A DNA stretch of 64,000 nucleotides, from NCBI RefSeq assembly GCF_032118995.1, contig NC_092649.1:30456927-30520926 (forward strand), read 5' to 3'. The notes under the pieces were generated by a model. It ran no database searches. It worked only from the letters and a program-made list of their open reading frames with translations, and was not told the DNA's origin. Each line of letters opens with the position of its first letter. Position 1 is the stretch's first letter. A program made the translations under genes and the position numbers. The stretch is from Asterias amurensis (taxonomy: Eukaryota > Echinodermata > Asteroidea > Forcipulatida > Asteriidae). Positions 17,801 to 64,000 of this stretch are shown here, in pieces.

Positions 17801-20800
17801 GGGCAGAGGTTTTGGAATAATACTATCTGTGTGGAAGGTCATCCACACATCTAGGTAGCATAGTTAGCCCCGAATTATGTTCCTGTATATATCCCTCATC
17901 TGATATACCAAGGGCACAGCAAAACAAAGGGTGAACCTACGTGATTATGGTTTGACCATAATCATTTGCCTCATGACACCCAGCACATCAACAGAGGCAC
18001 TTTCTCCATGCATGTGGTTGTACAACCTAATAAACCAGTGTGTGTACACTTTCTAATCCCAGTCCAAACCTTGTATATTATTCAACCAATGGCAATGTGG
18101 AGGCCCATCTATCTGGAGGTCACAATGAACCATGTGAAAGGTGAACAAATCATGAATATTCAGTTTTGTGTAAAGGTTCCTTAACACACAATTGAGGGAA
18201 ACGTATTCAAATCTTGTTCATATAATTTGTGGTAGGTTATCACAACTGATCCCAGAGATAGTGTAGTTATCGTGTAAAACTGCATTTTCCTTCACAAATT
18301 ATCAATAGATTAATATCTATGTTTCTCATTACAACTTTACCACTAGTTTTGTATGATGCCTTTTTATTTTCTCTATTACCAGATCAATTTTCCGATGTGC
18401 ACCATAGCTCATACACCCAGACTACCCGAGCATTGTATCGAGTATGTTAAAGTCCTACTCTGGCCTCAGGAATATCCATTTGGGAGTAAGTCTCCAACAG
18501 ATAATTTATTTTTAGAAATTTTATGATTAATTGATAGCTGGAATTTGATTTGTATATGACCATATTGATTTGTAGCAAATCTTCACACAAAGTGAGGAAT
18601 CTGCCCACAACCAAAATATCCATGTGTTGAGAAAATTATCTTTAAAAGTGATTTATTTTTCAAACAGTTGTTTTGAAAGAAAAAAAAACTTAAGATTGAG
18701 CAACCAAAGTAAAGCTGATCTCTTTATTCGTACAGAACAGACAATGTTTGTCATTCTTGTTTTTTGTATTTATTTATTCTTAAATTTATTCACCACTTTG
18801 TGAAAACGAAAAATGCAACCTGCCTGCTGAGCGCTGTGTACAAAACAATGGATGAGATTATTTTACATGCATTACACAACACATGGAACCCGACCAACGA
18901 CTTTACATCCCATCCTAAGGACGAAGCAAAGGTTAAGTGTCTTGCTTAAGAACACAAGTGTCACGACTGGGGCTTGAACCCACACTCTGCTGGTCAGAAA
19001 CACAACAGTTTGAATTCATTGCTCTTAACCGCTCGGCCACGACACTTCCACAAATAAATACCTTATATGTACACTGTATGTACATACGATGTATACTAAT
19101 TAGTACAAAACTATTGTGTGGTAGGTCCCAAAACTTGTTAACAACAATGATTTGTTTAAGAATTACAAGCCTTGAATACACAAACAAGATATAAACAACT
19201 CAATCATTCTAATTTGTTTTATTCCCAAGGTGATGTAGCCATAGATGGTGATGATCCAACACATATTCAGTGGATATTTGAAAAAGCACAAGAAAGAGCT
19301 GATCAATATAACATCATGGGGGTGACTTATAGACTGACACAAGGTGAGATAAGCAGGGTGAAAAATGAAACAATTGTAGTATGTGACTCATGGTATATGG
19401 TATAGCTTACGTGAGACACGAGGAAACGTTTCTTGGTGGGACAATCAAGTTGACATTTACAGTGTCGCAATCAGGGTGACAAATGGTTAGACATGCAGCC
19501 ACTATGCATTTCGGTTTGGGCCGCTGAAAGGTTAAACATTTGTTAAGTGAGTAAATAAAACAAGTTTTGAGTTTTGGTGGGAAGTGCATGGTTTAGCATC
19601 AACTCATGGGCCTTTTTTACGTAATTTGACAATTGTCAATTGGTACGGGCAACTTGCAATAGAGTGTGCCCTCTACAGTGTATTCAAGAAAGGCCATTTT
19701 CTCAAAAGCAGTCGGCTAAAAAACAATCACGCTGTCTGACCTGAATGAGGAAACATTCAACAGCTTTCAAAGTATTCCTTCTATTTCGTAAAAGCAGGGC
19801 AAATACAACCTTTACTGCTTTACAAACCACCAACAAACTGCGGAATCCCTTTATGAATTAAAAACCTTGAAGCATACAAATTCAAAAATGTTTATCAAAT
19901 TATGAATGACCAAGTTCCATTACATCAAATTTATATACAGGTTGCATATTTTGAGCACGTTACATATGTACTTCAAGCTAGAGATGCATCTACGTCACAA
20001 ACTGTTTCTGGTTAACGACCCATTTTGGCCTGATGCTCAGATATTTTTTAGTCTATGAATGTTACGTTGGAACCTTGTTTCTGGTTAGAGTGGCTATACC
20101 CCCCAGTCTTTCAAGGCGCAAGGTCTTTCAGAAACCACAATTCTGGTAAATTTGGTCAAATTAACATGAGTGACCATGTCATAGAGGGATATGGTGGACA
20201 CATAACTTTGAAATTATTAGGTTTGGGTAAATATCAGTTAACACCCAAACCAAACAGTGTACTCAATTGGCTCATACAATATAGTGTCCACCAAAAGACT
20301 ATACTTTATATCGACTACTCCGCATTAGTAGACATCAAGTTTTCAAAAGAACATAATCTACCCAGCAAGTAGACACACACACAGTGTTACCGCAAACCAA
20401 ATATACACTGATACATGTACGTCACCATGCCTCAAATCCCGTATATACTAATGTGTCCACTGTTATTGTATACCTAGGTGTAGTTAAGCATATCATACCA
20501 GCCGTAGCATCAACTAATGCAACACTATCAGCACAGTGTGTGACAGAAGCTTTCAAGATTGCATCAAGGTAAGTCAATCTGGTATTTTGAAATTATTCAT
20601 CAAATCTATTTCTTCTTCCAAGTAAAGTGCAGACTTCATGGTATGAATTTAACACACTGTGAGGTTGGTGCACACGCTGTCCAATTGATCAAAATCCACA
20701 GTTAAGTGTTTTTCTTAGAAACCGAATGAGTCTCTTTGCCAACAATAACTTTAAAGTCCACCCATGATTATTAAACTCCTTTTACAAGGAGCTCCGAAAA

Positions 20801-23800
20801 TGCAAAACCAATTTGATGAAATTCATATAAATTGCACCAGCGACCTTTTTGTTATAGAGCCGATGAAACGTAATTATTGTTGTTAAAATGTTAAAATGAA
20901 GAAATATTCTTCTAAAATGCCCATTTGTTTTTGATTTGTGACATTATTCACTGATAACCAAGGAGTCTGTATCCATTATTAAATTTAATCCATACATTTA
21001 TTTTTATACAGACATGTAGCTATAGAAATTAAATACACCAAATAGGAATGATAATTTCCAAGAAGTTGAAACTATACATCTATCATCTGCAATAACACTC
21101 TTAAACAGGTCCACATGTCAAAATTCACTTTAAATACACATCTGTATCCAAGCTTTATCTTTACTTGGGTGTTACTGACTACTAATGGTCACTGGTCCAT
21201 CGATGTGCTGATTGTGTCAGAGTTACTGGTAGAATGTTCGTCTAGGCAAAGTAGCGTCATGATGAGTGCTATTGGTTTTCTTTGATGTGTGTAGTGGTAG
21301 TCAAGAGTTTCATTGCAGTAATATTCTCTACAACAAATTTTCAACAAATTAATCTGGCTGGTGAGCTGAAAAGTTTACAGAAATCCTGGCAGTAAATAGT
21401 TAAGGTGTACATGTAGGTGGTGCTGTGATTGTCCTTAAGCTCTCAATGCGTTGATGGTTATCTTGATAGTCAATAATCCTCTGGGTCTTTAGTATTAATA
21501 GTCAAGGTGTACATGTAGGTGTTGCCGTGATTGTCCTTAGGCTCTCAATGCGTTGATGGTTATCTTGATAGTCAATAATCCTCTGGGACTTTCTTCCAAA
21601 GAGAGTCTTAAGTGCATCTCTGAAGCGTTTGTATTTGATTGCGTAAATGAGTGGATTGATGCTAGAGTTAGCTGCAGCAAACACTGTGGCTATATCATAA
21701 GGTATACCAGAGAGGTTGGCTGCTAAGGTGATGGTGTTTGGCAACCAGCAAATGAAGTACGCAACACAGACTAAGATAAGCGTCTTGATGACATTGCGAC
21801 GAGCTCGCAGAAGGGATTCCTCTTTGGTCTCTTGATTGGTCTGAGTTGAATTTGAAGACCCTGCCCCGGTGTGAAGATGTGATTCAGTAGTGCTCATTGG
21901 AACCGGGTCAGTTTGCCTAGCGCTTCGCTTCAGTACGACAGAGATATGAATGTATGCAAAGAGCATCGTCCAGGCCGGTGCAATAAATGATATAATGTTG
22001 GTTGCCTGCACGAAGGGGTTTAAAGGATTTTTTGAAGTGGGAGGTAGCGACACAATACATGTTTTCTCTTCTTCGGAGTAAGTAATCAAACCGAAAATCA
22101 AAAGTGACAGTCCAACTCCGAAAATCCACGTAATGGTTATAGCAATACCTGGTACCCACCAGCATGCTAGTAATGCTTGATACTTGAAGGGGTACACAAT
22201 GGCCAGGTAGCGTTCCAGGGTTACCAGCATCAAGCTGATTGCCGATGTTAAAAGAAACATCCAGAGGATGGATTCAGACTTCCAGAGATAACAGTACAAC
22301 CATCCAGAAAAACCATCAGGTAGTGTCTCTGAGCTTGGAATATTGAAAAACAACATCAAGACGACTGAGCCTAGTAAATCAGCAACTGCCTGATTGCAGA
22401 GGATAGCGTTAGTTACTGTATGCATGTCTGGTACTCGGCATATAGCAACACAAACTACAAAGTTCCCCAAAACACCAAGGATACCTATGACTGCACTGAA
22501 TGCACCCAAGACCTGCATCACCGTATCATCCATGGTGTCTAGTGAGCTACGATGCAGCATAAACAAAGTCTCGTTTACAGATAAACTATTTCCATAAACA
22601 TCAATCATTCTGACAATCGCTGTCTATTCTACTCAAATGCTTACTAACTTTGCCAACGTCATACTCTAGCTCATTTCGATAATAACCTCTCCTTCTTTGT
22701 GAAGTCTAACTAGCTTCAAGTTCCCACACGGTTTTATATAAACCTCTCAGTCACATCAAGCCCCTGTAATATGAAAAGTTCAAAGTCTAGTTTTTTTCCC
22801 ATTTATGCATCTATTGAACAAGACAGCTTTTCACTGACGCTGATGAATGACATAAAAGTGATTCGATTAGCAGCCTCTGACGATGTTAAAAATTGTCCAG
22901 CGTGGGTATTTTTCAATTCAGATCACGTAGCTGGGTCTAGTCGTTTGATTAACTTTGTTTGTGGCATTACTAATTGATTTTAAAAAAGAGTGGTGCTCAT
23001 CCCTTTTGTTTGTTATGGAGATTTATTTTCTGTTTGTATAGATCTTGTTGTTAGGGCCCGAAATCTGAAATCAAGATGTGGTTCAATTTTAATCCAGATT
23101 GTTGTGGGTAAATCGAGGTAGTGCAAGTCACATTTGTATCCAAACGAGAAAAAGGACACATAGAATACAATATTTTTTTTCTATGAAATTAGATCGTTGT
23201 TAATTCTGGGTATACCAAAATCTTTAAAGTAAAAATTTGAATTTTTTTACAACTACAATTTGAATTTGTCAAGTAATTTGTTTTCAGTCAAAATGTGAAA
23301 TTCAAGGCCATGAAATTCAAGGTAATTGACACCAGTTTAGCTTGAGTTTAGAGACATGTAATTTGTCCCCACTCTCATGAAGACTATCTTATGAAAAATG
23401 AGTGCACAAAATTAAAAATCTAGGGTTGCCAGTATCCCACCAATGTTGGTGTGACATGTACTTTGCATGTGTGGATTGGTGTAGAAGCTTACATTTCAAC
23501 CATTTCCCACCATCTTTAATTCCCACCATCTTTAAAACCATGTGACATTGTTATTGATTACAGCTGCTGTAGCCCACTCAACAATTACATGGTATTCAAC
23601 GACACTGCTGGCTTGTATACGTATACCTTTGAAGCTGAGAAGAAGGTGAGTAATCAACGTTAGCAACCTCCATTAGATACAATTACTCAGAAACCAGGAT
23701 TGACATCACAAACTTGCCGCCTCTCTGACGACTGATCGTGTGTTTCTTAAAACACACTCAAGATTTCCACATCCCAGCTCGAGTGTGAAAAATCAACAGT

Positions 23801-26800
23801 CCCTATTTTTGTTGGCGGTTTGTTGTTTTAGTTGCCGGGAGTGTGCAGGTTAATCTTAGACACCGAGGCATGGGGGTTGAGGGCAGACCACGCATTTAGC
23901 AATTTACTTGTGGGTCATTACTTTCGGGTAAATCATTTATAGGGCATCTTTAATATCAGAATGAATGCAGTGACATTGCCGTAGACTGGTTTGTAGCTTC
24001 TTGGAATTGCTAAATTAAAAACTGGGGTAACATTTCTACAATGGTGAGGCAGATCTCTTCAAACCGCCTTCAGATTTTTATTGAATGCAATTCTTAATGT
24101 TGATTCCTGTTGAGAGGATCTTTAAGTTCTCAAAAAATGATAGCCTAAAAAATGGCTTCAAGTATCATAGGATGCATTTAGTTAGTGAAAACTCAATTCG
24201 GTACATGTTCTAGATTATTCTTATAAGAACTGGTCTTGCCGTCTAATAGTGCAGTAGATTAGGAAATGGAGAAGCTTCATTATCAATAAGGCCTTGTCCT
24301 ACTGTTTACCTACTCCTTGAATACTTAAAAACAGAATTCAAATAAATTTTCAGTCACTTGAGTTTTAGAACAGATTCAATCTAAGTAGAGTTTCAAGTAT
24401 GGATTTTGAGTATGGTTGCAAGTACAATGAGAATGGTACTTGTGAAGTACTAAAACACAGGGACTTTGCTGGGTGCTATCTGTCTTTATAAATTTTACAT
24501 TTGTGGCATTATTCTAAAACCTGTTTCTAAACATCTGTCCAAGCAAAAAGCATGTCCCACAAGGTATTATTGTTTCTCCTTTAAAATGATTTTCCTGAAA
24601 AAACTGACTTTCTCAAACTTATTTTTTGTTCACATCTTGAACTTTCACAAAGCGCGTTTTAAAGTCTTGAGATGTTTATCGCCCCGGCCAACATGAAAGC
24701 GGAAGTTTAGCCAGTTTAATTTAGACCTGCCACTAACAGTCCTTAAATTGGCTCGGGACACCACTAGCGTTAAGAGCTACACGGATTACTCATTAACTTT
24801 TCTACTATGACTCTTTGGGCATGCAATGCATCACTGGAATGTATTAAACAGACACCACAAACAACCAACATGCATTGTATTTCAGCAATGTGCTGTATGA
24901 TGAAACAAAAATGTTCAACTGACAATGACTGATTGTACACAAAAATATCAGGTACATTTACAATAACCGGGCAAATATCATCCAAGTGACATTAATAACT
25001 CATTGAATTTGATTTGCCATTGTTGACTTTGTTGTACTTTCAAGTCAGCTAAGCACTCCAGGCATGCACAGCATACTTTATAAACTGTTCAATTGAATCA
25101 AATTTTAAGTGTAGTGGAATAAACATTATTGCTACAAAGCTAAGATCATGTTAGCAATTATTTTCCCAACAGTTTATGATTAAGTAGAGTTGGTTTGATG
25201 AGTGTGCGTGTGTTTTTACGGAACCAAAGAACAATCTGTGTTACATTGAATGCATGTTGTTCATAATCAAATCAAACAGTATTAAACAGTTTTTAATCCG
25301 TTAAGCCATCATACTAGTGTCAACAGACTGTTTGTAAACAAATGTTGTTTACTCCGCTAAAAAAGGATTACAAATCCATTCCCAGTTGAGACCTGGAATA
25401 TCGAGATAAGGAAAATATCAAACTACCCTGGACTGAAAACAAATTCCATGGAATCCTTTCAGAATAAGCACATGGGAATTGTAAACAAATCTCTAGCTGC
25501 AAACAGTAAACAAATCTCTTTGCCTTGGACTATTCTACCTCCATGAACTAATACTGGCTGAAATCATTCATGTCTATGCCAGATGGCTTGATGGGTTGCA
25601 ATTTGTCTGATTGATGGTTCCGACCATTTTAAAGATGTGTTCACCCAAACATTTTTTACATAATATTATGTTCTTTCTGTAAGGGTGTGAGTTGACAGAT
25701 GATTAGCACCTTTATAATTGTTGTTATTATAGGAGGATTGTATTGCATGCAGTCAAGTGCCTCAAGTATTGAAGTTTCCTGAAGATGCAACTCTTCAGAA
25801 TCTCTTAGATCACCTCACAGAGAGTGCTAGCTTGTAAGTATTTATCATGTATTTTTTAAAAATGATTGTCCAAATGAAAAAGTACCTTTAATTAATCTTA
25901 CGAGGCGTAGTGAGTACCACAGCGCTTTACAAGGAAACAGTACAAAGGCACAACATGTATTGGCTTGAGACAGATTGTTCTGAGCAATCAGTCATTGAAA
26001 AGGGAAGTTTCCAGATGTTTCTTGAAAATGTTGAACAGATTTAATGAGGAAGACATTTTAAAAGACATTGGGGGGGGGGGGGAGAGCACCTTTGGAACCA
26101 CTTAGAACCACTAGTAATAGTAAACTATCTAAACCAGAGCAAAGGCCAGCTTGTCCAGAATGGTCTGCTTGATGATGCTGTCTGTTATTTATTGTTTAAT
26201 AAGCGCTAGACTTTGGTAGGCTGAGACGGCTTGTTCCTTAACAGTGATGTTTCGATATTAACGAGGCCCAATTTCATGGCTCTGCTTTTTACCGAAGCAA
26301 AGAATAGGCACCTAGACCAAAAGTATTTCACAGGTTAGCGTGAAATATTTGCTTGTGCGCGTGCCTAGTCCACAATACTAAGCATTCTTCGCTTACACAG
26401 CTAGCGCAATTGACGCTTGCCAGTAAGCCGAGAATGGTGATCGTAAGCACAGAATTCGGCTGTAAGCAGAGCCATGAAATTGGGCCCTGGTCTATACTGC
26501 ATTAACGCTTCCTTATATTGAATGCTTTGCTTAACAGACAGATGAAATCACCAGGAATCACTACAACAGTTAACGGCAAGAATAAGACGCTTTATATGCA
26601 GAACCCTGAAGCCATTCGAATTAGGACAAAGGAAAACCTTCCCAAGAAACTCAAAGGTCAGTTACACCATGAATATTCATGTGAAAGGTCAACCACTTTT
26701 ATTTCCACTAGATACTTATACCAGAGATAATGAAGACATGAACTGTTAACAAACAACTGCATGTACGTACATATTTCAACTCCTTCACCAATGGCTTAAT

Positions 26801-30511: not shown

Positions 30512-31437
30512 TTGATATGCACAAGTTGCAGACTGGTCTGTACGAATTACAGGCCAATTAGCACGGATTGCAGGCTGATAAGCACGAATTATAGGCCGGT
30601 ATGCACAAGTTACAGGCCCATAAGCACAAACTGCAGGCTGGTACGCACGGATTACAGGCCGGTACGCACAAGTGACAGGCCTATTAGCACGGATTGCAGG
30701 CTGATAAGCACAAATTATAGGCCGGTACGCACAAGTTACAGGCCCATAAGCACGAACTGCAGGCTGGTACGCACGGATTACAGGCCGGTACGCACAAGTG
30801 ACAGGCCTATTAGCACGGATTGCAGGCTGATAAGCACAAATTATAGGCCGGTACGCACAAGTTACAGGCCCATAAGCACGAACTGCAGGCTGCTACGCAC
30901 GGATTACAGGCCGGTATGCACAAGTGACAGGCCTATTAGCACGGATTGCAGGCTGATAAGCACGAATTATAGGCCGGTACGCACAAGTTACAGGCCCATA
31001 AGCACAAACTGCAGGCTGGTACGCGTGGATTACAGGCCGGTACGCACAAGTGACAGGCCTATTAGCACGGATTGCAGGCTGATAAGCACGAATTATAGGC
31101 CGGTACGCACAAGTTACAGGCCCATAAGCACGAACTGCAGGCTGCTACGCACGGATTACAGGCCGGTACGCACAAGTGACAGGCCTATTAGCACGAATTG
31201 CAGGCTGGTACGCACGGATTACAGGCCGATTAACACAAGTTACAGGCCCATTAGCACGAATTGCAGGCTGGTATGCACAAGTTACAGGCCTATTAGCACG
31301 AATTGCAGGCTGGTACGCACGGATTACAGGCCCATTAGCACGAATTGCAGGCTGGTACGCACGGATTACAGGCCGATTAACACAAGTTGCAGACTGGTCT
31401 GCACGCACAAAAGGCCGTTAAGCACAAATTGCAGTCA
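30512..31437. repeat. Higher-order minisatellite, 21-bp monomer in 126-bp sets
   Basis: The monomer is about 21 bp, with consensus near GGCCGGTACGCACAAGTTACA. Monomer variants (TTACAGGCC, TTGCAGGCT, TTATAGGCC, GTGACAGGCC) recur in a fixed order of six, giving a 126-bp higher-order unit. This is clearest from 30600 to 31200 and irregular towards the right end. Because 21 is divisible by 3, long open frames run through it; they are by-products of the period. Confidence 0.9.
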
Positions 31438-32260: not shown

Positions 32261-35200
32261 TTATTTTTTTCTGCCTTTTGTAACCGTCGTCCATCCATCA
32301 TCATCAGTTTCAGGTTTTGGAGATTCTAAGAAAATAAAGCAGAGAAATAGGAAGATGTTATGTAATTGCTCATGATGGGATCAGCTAGTTAAAGTTTTAC
32401 AAAAGCAATATTTTAAGGTTGTTTACTTTTTCATCAAATTAAGATAACAATACATTACAAGTGTAGCTGAGAACTACATTTAGTCAAATTAGATGTTAGT
32501 TTTGCATCAGGGTTAAAGAACAAAACTTTTTTTGTCTGTGGATTTTTTTCTACAAAACTCGGGCAGTATACAATCAGTGCTTAAGATAATACACATCGGT
32601 GTAAGGGTAAAAACAAATTAGAAATTGTGTATACAAAGCAAGTTACAATATCACTGTTAAATCACCATGATCTAATTAGGGTTTGAATTACAAATTGAAA
32701 CAAACAACAATTAAAAAATCCTGATATACAAAGGATAATGTCATCATGAAATCAAGCAATATCACATAAATAACAAAGGATAAAGTCATCACATGAAATC
32801 AAGCAATATCACATGAAAATAACAAAGGATAAAGTCATCACATGAAATCAAGCAATATCACATGAAAATTACAAAGGATAATGTCATCATGAAATCAAGC
32901 AATATCACATGAAAATAGCAAAGAATAAAGTCATCATGAAATCAAGCAATATCACATGAAAATTACAAAGGATAAAGTCATCACATGACATCAAGTAATA
33001 TCACATGAAAATTACAAAGAACAAAGTCATCATGAAATCAAGCAATATCACATGAAAATAGCAAAGAATAAAGTCATCATGAAATCAAGCAATATCACAT
33101 GAAAATTACAAAAGATAAAGTCATCATGAAATCAAGCAATGTCAGTGTCACATGAAAATACCAAAGGATAAAGTCATCATGAATCAGCAACATCACATTA
33201 AAATAAAAGTCATCATGACATCAAGATTGTTATACCTCGGTAACAAACTGTGAAGTTTGATTGGTCGAGAACCAATCATGTGACGTGACGCGCAACAAAA
33301 ACGCATGTTACATGGCTCAACGGGCCGGGTAACATGAAAAGTGATGTACACCGGTGTACATCACTTTGATCGTTCCCGGCGTTGGTCGATTTCCAGCGCT
33401 GTGTCCGAAACAACCGCGGGTTCGAGGGAATTGTTTCTTGTTCGTCTGCGCTTGAAACAATGAATAGTCCATCGTAATAATGTTTGAAGACGACAACAGA
33501 ACTTCGAGAAGAGGAGTAACATTATTTTACAAAGGTATAACAAAACAATTGTTGCACGCTGTGACTGATGGGGGTCTATGGGTTTTGTACACTCGAGGGT
33601 GGAAATGGCACCCTCGAGTGTACAAAACGCCATAGAACCCGTCACAGCGTGTAACAATTGTATAATGTCACATGAAAATTAAAGTCATCATGACATCAAG
33701 CAATGTCACATGAACACAGCAAATACAAAAACACATCAATGTAAACACCAAGCATCAAATAACGTAGACAAGGAAATGTTAAAATAACACAGATATTAAG
33801 TAGAAAAATGGAAAAGAAGGATTCAGTGCATTGCCCATACACATAAGCGTCATGACCAGGATTCGAACCCGCACTTCAATTCCTAAACCACCCTGACTAG
33901 AGTTCACTGCTCTACCCTGCTCGGCCATGACACACTACATTAACATTTATGTTGAATTAGGTGGTCTAATCAAATTACCTGTTTTGCTAGGTTGTTCTTG
34001 ATTGTTGAATCCATTCATAACTGGTGTCCCGTCATTGGTACTCATCTCTATATTGCCCATCATGGCATGTAGATTATGTTCATGAGTTGGAGCATCATCT
34101 GTATCCTAGAACCAGACGGAAATTATACTCAATTTATTTATTTCAACTAAAGGTAAGAATACATTATATTTACAAAAAACATGCATAAAAACAAATTCCA
34201 CAACTTCAAGGAAACGGGATAACCCTGACACTCATGGACGACCCCCACACCATCTTGACATTTAAAGAACATTGCTCAAGGAAACAAGTGTCATTGAACT
34301 CACACCCAAGACCACCAGAACTTGAGTCTGGTGGTGCACTAGATCACTCAAACATGACACACTATAAAAAGAGAACAAACAAAGAACTCACACCCAAGAC
34401 CACCAGAACTTGAGTCTAGTGTTGCACTAAATCAATCAAACATGACACACTATAAAAAGACAAGAAACAAAGAACTCACACCCAAGACCACCAGACCTTG
34501 AGTCTAGTGTTGCACTAGATCACTCAAACATGACACACATTAAAATGACAACAAACAAAGAACTCACACCCAAGACCACCAGAACTTGAGTCTAGTGTTG
34601 CACTAGATCGCTCAAACATGACACACTATAAAAAGACAACAAACAAAGAACTCACACCCAAGACCACCAGAACTTAAGTCTAGTGTTGCACTAGATCGCT
34701 CAAACATGACACACTATAAAAAGACAACAAACAAAGAACTCACACCCAAGACCACCAGAACCTGAGTCTAGTGTTGCACTAGATCACTCAAACATGACAC
34801 ACTATAAAAAGAGAACAAACAAAGAACTCACACCCAAGACCACCAGACCTTGAGTCTAGTGTTGCACTAAATCACTCAAACATGACACACTATAAAAAGA
34901 GAACAAACAAAGAACTCACACCCAAGACCACCAGACCTTGAGTCTGGTGGTGCACTAAATCAATCAAACATGACACACTATAAAAAGACAACAAACAAAA
35001 GCTTAACAACAACGGGTCTAAAATTTCATTTTTGAAAGGGCAAGGCCATTTTCATTTAGCAAAGGGCACTTGTGTTTGAATCTCTTAAGGTCAATGGGAA
35101 ACTTTTCAAGGGGCACCAAGGCCAAGACTAGGAGCAATGGAGTCTATGGGCTCCATGGTCTTATTCCAGGTCTGTAGCAAACACAAAGGTAAAATCCCAT

Positions 35201-62426: not shown

Positions 62427-64000
62427 TGTATGACCTCCCATTGGAGTGGGGAGGGGGTGGATGTGGGTAGGAGAGGCTGGTGCATGACCTCCCATTGGAG
62501 TGGGGAGGGGGTGGATGTGGGTAGGAGAGGCTGGTGCATGACCTCCCATTGGAGTGGGGAGGGGGTGGATGTGGGTGGGAGAGGCTGGTGCATGACCTCC
62601 CATTGGAGTGGGGAGGGGGTGGATGTGGGTAGGAGAGGCTGGTGCATGACCTCCCATTGGAGTGGGGAGGGGGTGGATGTGGGTAGGAGAGGCTGGTGCA
62701 TGACCTCCCATTGGAGTGGGGAGGGGGTGGATGTGGGTAGGAGAGGCTGGTGCATGACCTCCCATTGGAGTGGGGAGGGGGTGGATGTGGGTAGGAGAGG
62801 CTGGTGCATGACCTCCCATTGGAGTGGGGAGGGGGTGGATGTGGGTGGGAGAGGCTGGTGCATGACCTCCCATTGGAGTGGGGAGGGGGTGGATGTGGGT
62901 AGGAGAGGCTGGTGCATGACCTCCCATTGGAGTGGGGAGGGGGTGGATGTGGGTAGGAGAGGCTGGTGCATGACCTCCCATTGGAGTGGGGAGGGGGTGG
63001 ATGTGGGTAGGAGAGGCTGGTGCATGACCTCCCATTGGAGTGGGGAGGGGGTGGATGTGGGTAGGAGAGGCTGGTGCATGACCTCCCATTGGAGTGGGGA
63101 GGGGGTGGATGTGGGTAGGAGAGGCTGGTGCATGACCTCCCATTGGAGTGGGGAGGGGGTGGATGTGGGTAGGAGAGGCTGGTGCATGACCTCCCATTGG
63201 AGTGGGGAGGGGGTGGATGTGGGTAGGAGAGGCTGGTGCATGACCTCCCATTGGAGTGGGGAGGGGGTGGATGTGGGTAGGAGAGGCTGGTGCATGACCT
63301 CCCATTGGAGTGGGGAGGGGGTGGATGTGGGTAGGAGAGGCTGGTGCATGACCTCCCATTGGAGTGGGGAGGGGGTGGATGTGGGTAGGAGAGGCTGGTG
63401 CATGACCTCCCATTGGAGTGGGGAGGGGGTGGATGTGGGTAGGAGAGGCTGGTGCATGACCTCCCATTGGAGTGGGGAGGGGGTGGATGTGGGTGGGAGA
63501 GGCTGGTGCATGACCTCCCATTGGAGTGGGGAGGGGGTGGATGTGGGTAGGAGAGGCTGGTGCATGACCTCCCATTGGAGTGGGGAGGGGGTGGATGTGG
63601 GTAGGAGAGGCTGGTGCATGACCTCCCATTGGAGTGGGGAGGGGGTGGATGTGGGTAGGAGAGGCTGGTGCATGACCTCCCATTGGAGTGGGGAGGGGGT
63701 GGATGTGGGTAGGAGAGGCTGGTGCATGACCTCCCATTGGAGTGGGGAGGGGGTGGATGTGGGTAGGAGAGGCTGGTGCATGACCTCCCATTGGAGTGGG
63801 GAGGGGGTGGATGTGGGTAGGAGAGGCTGGTGCATGACCTCCCATTGGAGTGGGGAGGGGGTGGATGTGGGTAGGAGAGGCTGGTGCATGACCTCCCATT
63901 GGAGTGGGGAGGGGGTGGATGTGGGTAGGAGAGGCTGGTGCATGACCTCCCATTGGAGTGGGGAGGGGGTGGATGTGGGTAGGAGAGGCTGGTGCATGAC
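62427..64000. repeat. 54-bp G-rich minisatellite, about 29 copies, runs off the window
   Basis: The unit includes GACCTCCCATTGGAGTGGGG, AGGGGGTGGATGTGGG and AGGAGAGGCTGGTGCAT. Copies are almost identical. The only variation I see is A versus G in GGGT(A/G)GGAG, with G in the third, eighth and twentieth copies from the left. As 54 is divisible by 3, frames of over 500 codons run through it; these are not genes. The plus strand has closely spaced G runs (GGGG, GGGGG, GGG). It lies in the ALAS intron upstream of 61703. Confidence 0.95.

What the first reader, a model, noticed from the sequence alone, without database searches (positions are those of the whole stretch)
21400..21603. GPCR tail duplicated in frame behind a TGA-CTA readthrough context
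Sequence: the receptor ends at TGA (21502-21504). The next codon is CTA, and the frame stays open for 33 codons to a TAA at 21400-21402. The last 27 of these (QRIIDYQDN...TCTP) repeat the receptor's own C-terminal tail with one replacement (Thr to Pro), owing to a 102-bp tandem duplication (34 codons). Of four coding differences over the compared region two are silent. Established knowledge: UGA followed by CUA is the best-known leaky stop context in animals and is reported for some mammalian opioid-family receptors. Inference: a fraction of receptors could carry a doubled cytoplasmic tail, which would double any phosphorylation, arrestin or PDZ-like sites. The plain alternative is a recent neutral duplication whose length happens to be a multiple of three.
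Basis: partly seen in the sequence, partly recalled or inferred. Interest (0 to 1): 0.85.

Follow-up and report, generated by a model that had tools for sequence, protein, structure and literature searches.

The report
Receptor tail copied past its stop
In a sea star genome the end of a smell-type receptor gene, stop signal included, was copied once in tandem so that the second tail happens to stay in frame behind a stop of a leaky type; tail copies of this kind recur in this genome and nothing here shows that the second tail is made or needed.

Summary
The sequence observation is right to the base. A 368-codon rhodopsin-type receptor (minus strand, ATG at 22608) ends at TGA-CTATTA (21504-21502); a 33-codon open frame follows to TAA (21402-21400), and its last 27 codons repeat the receptor's tail. 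Two 96-bp copies lie 102 bp apart, 91/96 identical. The genome fits the Asterias amurensis assembly. Readthrough is possible but not supported as a function: UGA-CUA alone gave 1.5% in human cells (PMC4132726), the +7 G is missing, copy differences (2 silent, 2 replacement) are unremarkable under neutrality (21-31% of trials), and no RNA structure follows. The main new evidence is a control: among 102 receptor 3' ends of this genome, four others carry tail copies behind the stop, and in each the frame closes before the copy begins. Comparable local duplications touch 7 of 300 random points and 18 of 315 window points. Most likely this is the youngest of a recurring neutral kind that happened to be a multiple of three. 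TGA-CTA is rare here (1 of 102), which keeps the readthrough reading alive.

The parts
21502..22608 (-). single-exon rhodopsin-type (7tm_1) receptor gene, 368 codons plus TGA
   Evidence: open frame; Pfam PF00001 E 3.9e-35 on 367 of 368 residues; ATG at 22608
21497..21592 (-). copy 1 of the tandem unit: 88 coding bases, TGA, 5 bases of 3' flank
21491..21496 (-). 6-base spacer (AATACT on the minus strand) between the copies
21395..21490 (-). copy 2 of the tandem unit, 91 of 96 bases identical, stop now TAA
21502..21504 (-). first stop, TGA followed by CTATTA
21403..21501 (-). 33-codon in-frame extension that only readthrough (or removal of the TGA from the RNA) would translate
21400..21402 (-). 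second stop, TAA
20997..21002 (-). first AATAAA behind both stops, so both tails probably lie in one mRNA (inferred)
   Evidence: AATAAA and ATTAAA sought in 20400-21504
22733..22740 (-). TATA-like box about 130 bases before the ATG
   Evidence: pattern only
20477..20569 (+). UBA3 exon upstream of the intron that holds the receptor gene
   Evidence: matches NEDD8-activating enzyme E1 catalytic subunit, residues 272-301 of 1r4m_B
23520..23660 (+). open stretch with the next UBA3 exon found; the receptor lies antisense in the intron between
   Evidence: 24 residues of it match 1r4m_B 311-330; no Pfam hit for this short stretch; E2_bind domain further on at 26536-26655

Best explanation
A local tandem duplication copied the last 88 coding bases of a sea star chemoreceptor-type gene together with its stop codon and a few 3' bases. 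Both copies carry the stop position and CTATT, so these predate the duplication and the original stop still terminates the receptor for nearly all ribosomes. The second tail is 3' UTR that happens to stay in frame because the copies lie 102 bases apart. UGA-CUAUUA may let through a small share of ribosomes (about a percent by analogy; inferred), giving a trace of receptor with a second tail, with no sign of selection for it. Shown: the duplication, its frame, and similar tail duplications in other receptor genes of this genome. Inferred: neutrality and the leak level.
For: Tandem anatomy crossing coding sequence, stop and UTR. Of 102 receptor 3' ends from this genome, the target and four others (L041, L060, L068, L096) have tail copies of 60 bases or more behind the stop; in L041, L060 and L096 the copied stretch runs into the stop codon, in L068 it reaches to 31 bases before it. 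In all four the in-frame extension (9, 31, 18 and 0 codons) closes before the copy begins. L068 and L096 are neighbouring paralogs, so about four independent events with the target. The same comparison finds local duplications reaching the point at 7 of 300 random points and 18 of 315 points of the window, and tandem-repeat counts agree in kind (12 arrays under three copies of period 30 or more in 227 kb). For this gene 12% of simulated stop-spanning units, and 36% of those whose length is a multiple of three, give an open second tail; four events would give at least one such case about 40% of the time (inference). Neutral change gives 2 or more silent codons of 4 changes in 21-31% of open trials, and four substitutions leave the frame open in 87%. 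Tail ends drift in close paralogs: L020, L022 and L023 differ in where they stop.
Against: The stop context is unusual here: TGA-CTA is found in 1 of 102 receptor ends, the target, and TGA followed by C in 2 of 35 TGA ends. That a rare leaky context coincides with the one open tail copy is, by my rough estimate (inference, no call), expected in well under one gene per genome, though it was picked out after being seen. The 96 bases of copy 2 hold no indel although the heterozygous indel to SNP ratio is about 0.3 in this species (0.194% to 0.632%); this has little power. Parts of the copies in L041 and L096 lie in the receptor's frame, though behind further stops.
Confidence: 0.78

Rival explanations
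1. Selected stop codon readthrough: the UGA is kept leaky so that a set share of receptors bears a doubled cytoplasmic tail with extra Ser/Thr sites, ended by a tighter UAA.
For: UGA-CUAUUA context. UGA-CUA alone 1.5%; CUAUUA in the OPRL1 context at wild-type level; UAA about 6-fold below UGA in OPRL1 (PMC4132726). C at -5 as in strong contexts (PMC12233894). Both stops lie before the first AATAAA. OPRK1 and OPRL1 are receptors with extensions of 28 and 28-34 residues.
Against: +7 is U not G, -3 is not G and +9 is not C. The same paper notes that CUAUUA behind UAG did not stimulate in a plant system, and even UGA-CUAG contexts vary more than 15-fold (0.9% for LDHB). No silent-change excess. 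No structure: z +0.80. None of 101 other receptor ends has TGA-CTA. Tail copies in four other receptors are out of reach of one readthrough.
Confidence: 0.12
2. Leak without selection but with effect: the extension is translated at about 1-5% and changes desensitisation of a minor receptor pool by accident.
For: Same context data.
Against: The rate is borrowed from human cells. No echinoderm readthrough case showed in the 15 papers listed of 4,011 or in the 6 of 6 listed, judged by counts, titles and abstract starts.
Confidence: 0.06
3. An intron joins the two copies and removes the TGA, giving a longer or swapped tail by splicing.
For: An acceptor-like AATACTAAAG lies at the copy border.
Against: The only GT sites in 21381-21620 match 4-5 of 9 donor positions; the closest relatives match in one open frame.
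Confidence: 0.02
4. Assembly artefact.
For: Only one haplotype is held.
Against: Five differences in 96 bases, one place found in the genome; the published assembly that fits this genome used HiFi reads.
Confidence: 0.02

Closest known systems
UGA-CUAG readthrough genes OPRL1, OPRK1, AQP4, MAPK10 (PMC4132726)
   Same: UGA stop, CUA next, short in-frame extension; two of them are GPCRs with cytoplasmic extensions of 28-34 residues
   Different: +7 is U here; their motif is conserved in vertebrates and readthrough was measured in reporters; here the extension is a copy of the tail and nothing is measured
Tandem tail duplications behind the stop in other receptors of this genome (L041, L060, L068, L096)
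   Same: tail sequence, in three of four running into the stop codon, repeated within 400 bases downstream
   Different: 70-86% identical over stretches of 60 bases or more, mostly with gaps, and the frame closes before each copy
Starfish putative olfactory rhodopsin-type receptors, ApORs of Acanthaster (PMC5442662, passages)
   Same: large expanded rhodopsin-type family with tandem arrays; relatives here sit in arrays such as eight places in C12:19060312-19075737
   Different: this gene lies apart from such an array, inside a UBA3 intron; no direct sequence comparison with ApORs was made

Membership tests
UGA-CUA(G) readthrough genes | UGA stop followed by CUA | tested here: met
UGA-CUA(G) readthrough genes | G at +7 (CUAG) | tested here: not met
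   base is T
UGA-CUA(G) readthrough genes | open in-frame extension to a second stop | tested here: met
   33 codons to TAA; 17 of 102 receptor ends, target included, have 33 codons or more, so this feature discriminates little
UGA-CUA(G) readthrough genes | coding constraint on the extension | tested here: inconclusive
   2 silent and 2 replacement differences between copies; neutral share 21-31%; no ortholog reachable
UGA-CUA(G) readthrough genes | conservation of stop and extension in relatives | not testable with these tools
   the collections offered are bacterial, archaeal, viral and plasmid, apart from the window's own genome
UGA-CUA(G) readthrough genes | measured readthrough | not testable with these tools
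   needs reporter, ribosome profiling or peptides
Selenocysteine UGA | SECIS element in the 3' UTR | tested here: not met
   no Rfam family at gathering score in the window; that Rfam holds SECIS models is recalled
neutral local tandem duplication | adjacent direct copies without respect to gene parts, as found elsewhere in the genome | tested here: met
   unit crosses CDS, stop and UTR; background
rhodopsin-type GPCR (PF00001) | 7tm_1 profile over the cut-off | tested here: met
   122 bits against 30.5
starfish chemoreceptor-type GPCRs | expression in sensory organs | not testable with these tools
   no transcript data

The most novel reading that the evidence does not exclude
A tandem duplication across a leaky stop made a readthrough extension in one step: the new extension is a copy of a working tail, the proximal stop is UGA-CUA and the distal one is the tighter UAA, so the sea star now makes a minor receptor form with two tails. 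This would be a birth route for readthrough genes that starts from functional instead of random sequence, fed by the recurring tail duplications seen in this receptor family.
Probability: 0.1. Interest if true: 0.65.

Novelty: new member of a known kind. Interest (0 to 1): 0.27.

Why it matters
If translated, it would show how a readthrough extension can arise ready-made from a functional tail and would add an echinoderm receptor to the opioid-receptor cases. As it stands it is a clean, cheap test case: one reporter and one look at sister genomes decide it. The control shows why in-frame tail repeats alone are weak evidence of readthrough in genomes rich in local duplications.

Tried and rejected
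Selenocysteine reading (no Rfam hit); stimulating RNA structure; splicing around the TGA (weak sites by a simple consensus count); dispersed repeat or mobile element (one place found; that search skips very common words); PDZ doubling (logic, both ends TCTP; motif rules recalled). Ancestral state of the stop (TGA or TAA) could not be settled: paralogs are at most 46% identical over the matched stretches. A possible 4-base match (TACT) behind both copies, with a 2-base gap, would make the original unit 100 or 102 bases (by eye); left open.

Literature: I saw no paper on a tandem-duplicated tail behind a leaky stop in the listings (titles and abstract starts only; one search returned none, one search listed 15 of 4,011). 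I did not search for papers on tail duplications in starfish receptors as such.

Dropped or weak rows: one search was wrong (strand ignored) and was replaced. In one search the L030 row is not a real 3' end and L028 was flagged because its match runs past its stop; start 20 codons before the match end instead. The 102 ends are 30 loci plus 72 of 74 further places (counted by hand) reaching query residue 330 or beyond, out of 136 places; two places with internal TAA were left out. The stop was taken as the first in frame from 20 codons before the match end, so in multi-exon genes it may not be the true stop; relatives are not independent. L026 (28 bases) and L076 (a repeat within coding sequence matching 26-29 bases downstream) were hits not counted as tail copies. 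In one search the limits (40 bases, reaching within 31 bases of the point) were set after one search had been seen; by them the receptor ends score 5 of 102. Three of the seven random hits lie in one 10-kb piece, and the window points include long satellites and the target. Random DNA was 5 of the 60 pieces drawn. Some receptor loci overlap, so its 227 kb are not all distinct.

Full report
What is there. On the minus strand a single-exon receptor gene runs from ATG at 22608 to TGA at 21504-21502, 368 codons. It is a rhodopsin-type GPCR (Pfam PF00001, 122 bits). Searches used residues 2-368, since my query began one codon late. Behind the TGA the frame CTA TTA ATA CTA AAG ACC CAG ... stays open for 33 codons to TAA at 21402-21400. 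The last 27 residues, [27 protein letters not shown], repeat the receptor's tail with one replacement. The cause is a tandem duplication of 96 matching positions spaced by 102. Each copy holds 88 coding bases, the stop and five bases CTATT. The five differences are S/T, two silent, T/P and TGA/TAA. A DNA search found the unit at one place in the genome.

Which genome. G000 has 491.5 Mb in 23 contigs. C9 is 23,750,475 bases, C1 38,009,675 and C22 13,426,355. The Asterias amurensis assembly of PMC10625585 has 491.5 Mb, 22 chromosomes of 13.43 to 38.00 Mb and N50 23.75 Mb (passages). The totals differ by about 30 kb (491,506,623 here, 491,537,102 scaffolded in the paper). The identification rests on these lengths only.

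The gene. Relatives in the genome are at most 46% identical and many lie in tandem arrays, such as eight places in 15 kb of C12. This resembles the putative olfactory receptors of Acanthaster (PMC5442662, passages). The gene itself lies antisense in an intron of UBA3: the exon at 20477-20569 matches NEDD8-activating enzyme E1 catalytic subunit residues 272-301, a stretch in 23520-23660 matches 311-330, and the E2-binding domain follows at 26536-26655. A TATA-like box at 22740-22733 and an AATAAA at 21002-20997 frame it.

Could the stop leak. Loughran et al. (PMC4132726: first of six parts of the text, sections 15-16 and passages seen) report about 31% readthrough for OPRL1 and 13% for OPRK1 with UGA-CUAG, 1.5% for UGA-CUA alone, and a return to wild-type level when a CAAUUA hexamer is changed to CUAUUA in the OPRL1 context. 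CUAUUA is the hexamer here. They also note that the same change behind UAG in a plant system had no such effect. UAA in place of UGA in OPRL1 cut readthrough about six-fold. A later study (PMC12233894, one section and passages) finds C at -5, G at -3 and C at +9 frequent in strong contexts, and only 0.9% for LDHB although it has UGA-CUAG; here -5 is C, the other two are not met. So a leak of around a percent is plausible by analogy with human cells. No RNA structure supports more (121 bases, z +0.80).

Is the second tail selected. The four coding differences split two silent, two replacement. Neutral simulation gives at least two silent in 21-31% of open trials, and four substitutions leave the frame open in 87%. 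Copy divergence is 5.2% against a heterozygosity of 0.96% (k-mers) or 0.632% (SNPs) in the other A. amurensis assembly paper (PMC11090083, passages), so the duplication is probably older than typical polymorphism, with wide error on five changes. Neither result argues for or against function.

The control that carries my reading. I examined 102 receptor 3' ends of this genome (30 loci and 72 pieces). In five, the target included, 60 or more bases of the last coding stretch are repeated downstream of the stop. L041 has two downstream copies, one of which runs into the stop codon; L060 has one, which does; L096 has two, one of which does; L068, a neighbouring paralog of L096, has a copy reaching to 31 bases before the stop. 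Identities for these four are 70 to 86% over stretches of 60 bases or more, mostly with gaps. In all four the in-frame extension closes before the copy begins (9 codons in L041, 31 in L060, 18 in L068, 0 in L096), so one readthrough event would not reach it; parts of the copies in L041 and L096 do lie in the receptor's frame behind further stops. The same comparison, with limits set, finds local duplications reaching the point at 7 of 300 places in five random 10-kb pieces and at 18 of 315 points of the window, which includes satellites and the target, against 5 of 102 receptor ends. Tandem arrays under three copies and of period 30 or more number 12 in 227 kb. Tail duplication past the stop thus looks like background in this genome, and the target is the most similar pair. 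For this gene 12% of simulated units of 60-240 bases across the stop give an open second tail, so at least one open case among about four independent events is expected about 40% of the time (inference).

What remains odd. TGA-CTA occurs in 1 of 102 receptor ends, the target, and TGA followed by C in 2 of 35 TGA ends. The meeting of a rare leaky context with the one open copy is the residue that keeps the readthrough reading alive; it was noticed after the fact, and the context is itself part of the duplicated unit.

Verdict. As a mechanism I put 78% on a neutral, in-frame tandem duplication with at most trace readthrough, 12% on selected readthrough, and the rest on minor rivals. Sister genomes and population data would settle it; neither was reachable.

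Noticed in passing
window 20477-23660: The receptor gene lies antisense inside an intron of UBA3 (NEDD8-activating enzyme E1 catalytic subunit), with its own TATA-like box and poly(A) signal.
   Followed up: partly
L041, L060, L068, L096 (3' ends of other receptor genes): Diverged tandem copies of the receptor tail, in three of four running into the stop codon, lie within 400 bases behind the stop; L041 and L096 carry two each. I did not search the literature for this.
   Followed up: partly
L041 about 188-325 bases behind its stop: The second tail copy stays open over a 46-position aligned stretch, 59% identical to the receptor tail, in another frame than the receptor.
   Followed up: no
L016 2420-3205: A 267-base unit repeated 2.9 times overlaps the 5' end of a paralogous receptor's match.
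   Followed up: no
window 22674-22608: Two short upstream frames (2 and 9 codons) precede the receptor ATG in the same frame.
   Followed up: no
window 62430-64000: A 54-base satellite, 29 copies at 99% match, runs to the window's end; further arrays at 30547-31434, 32727-33206 and 34296-34999.
   Followed up: no
102 receptor 3' ends: C follows TGA in only 2 of 35 TGA-ended receptors but follows 14 of 67 other stops; relatives are not independent and no test was run.
   Followed up: no
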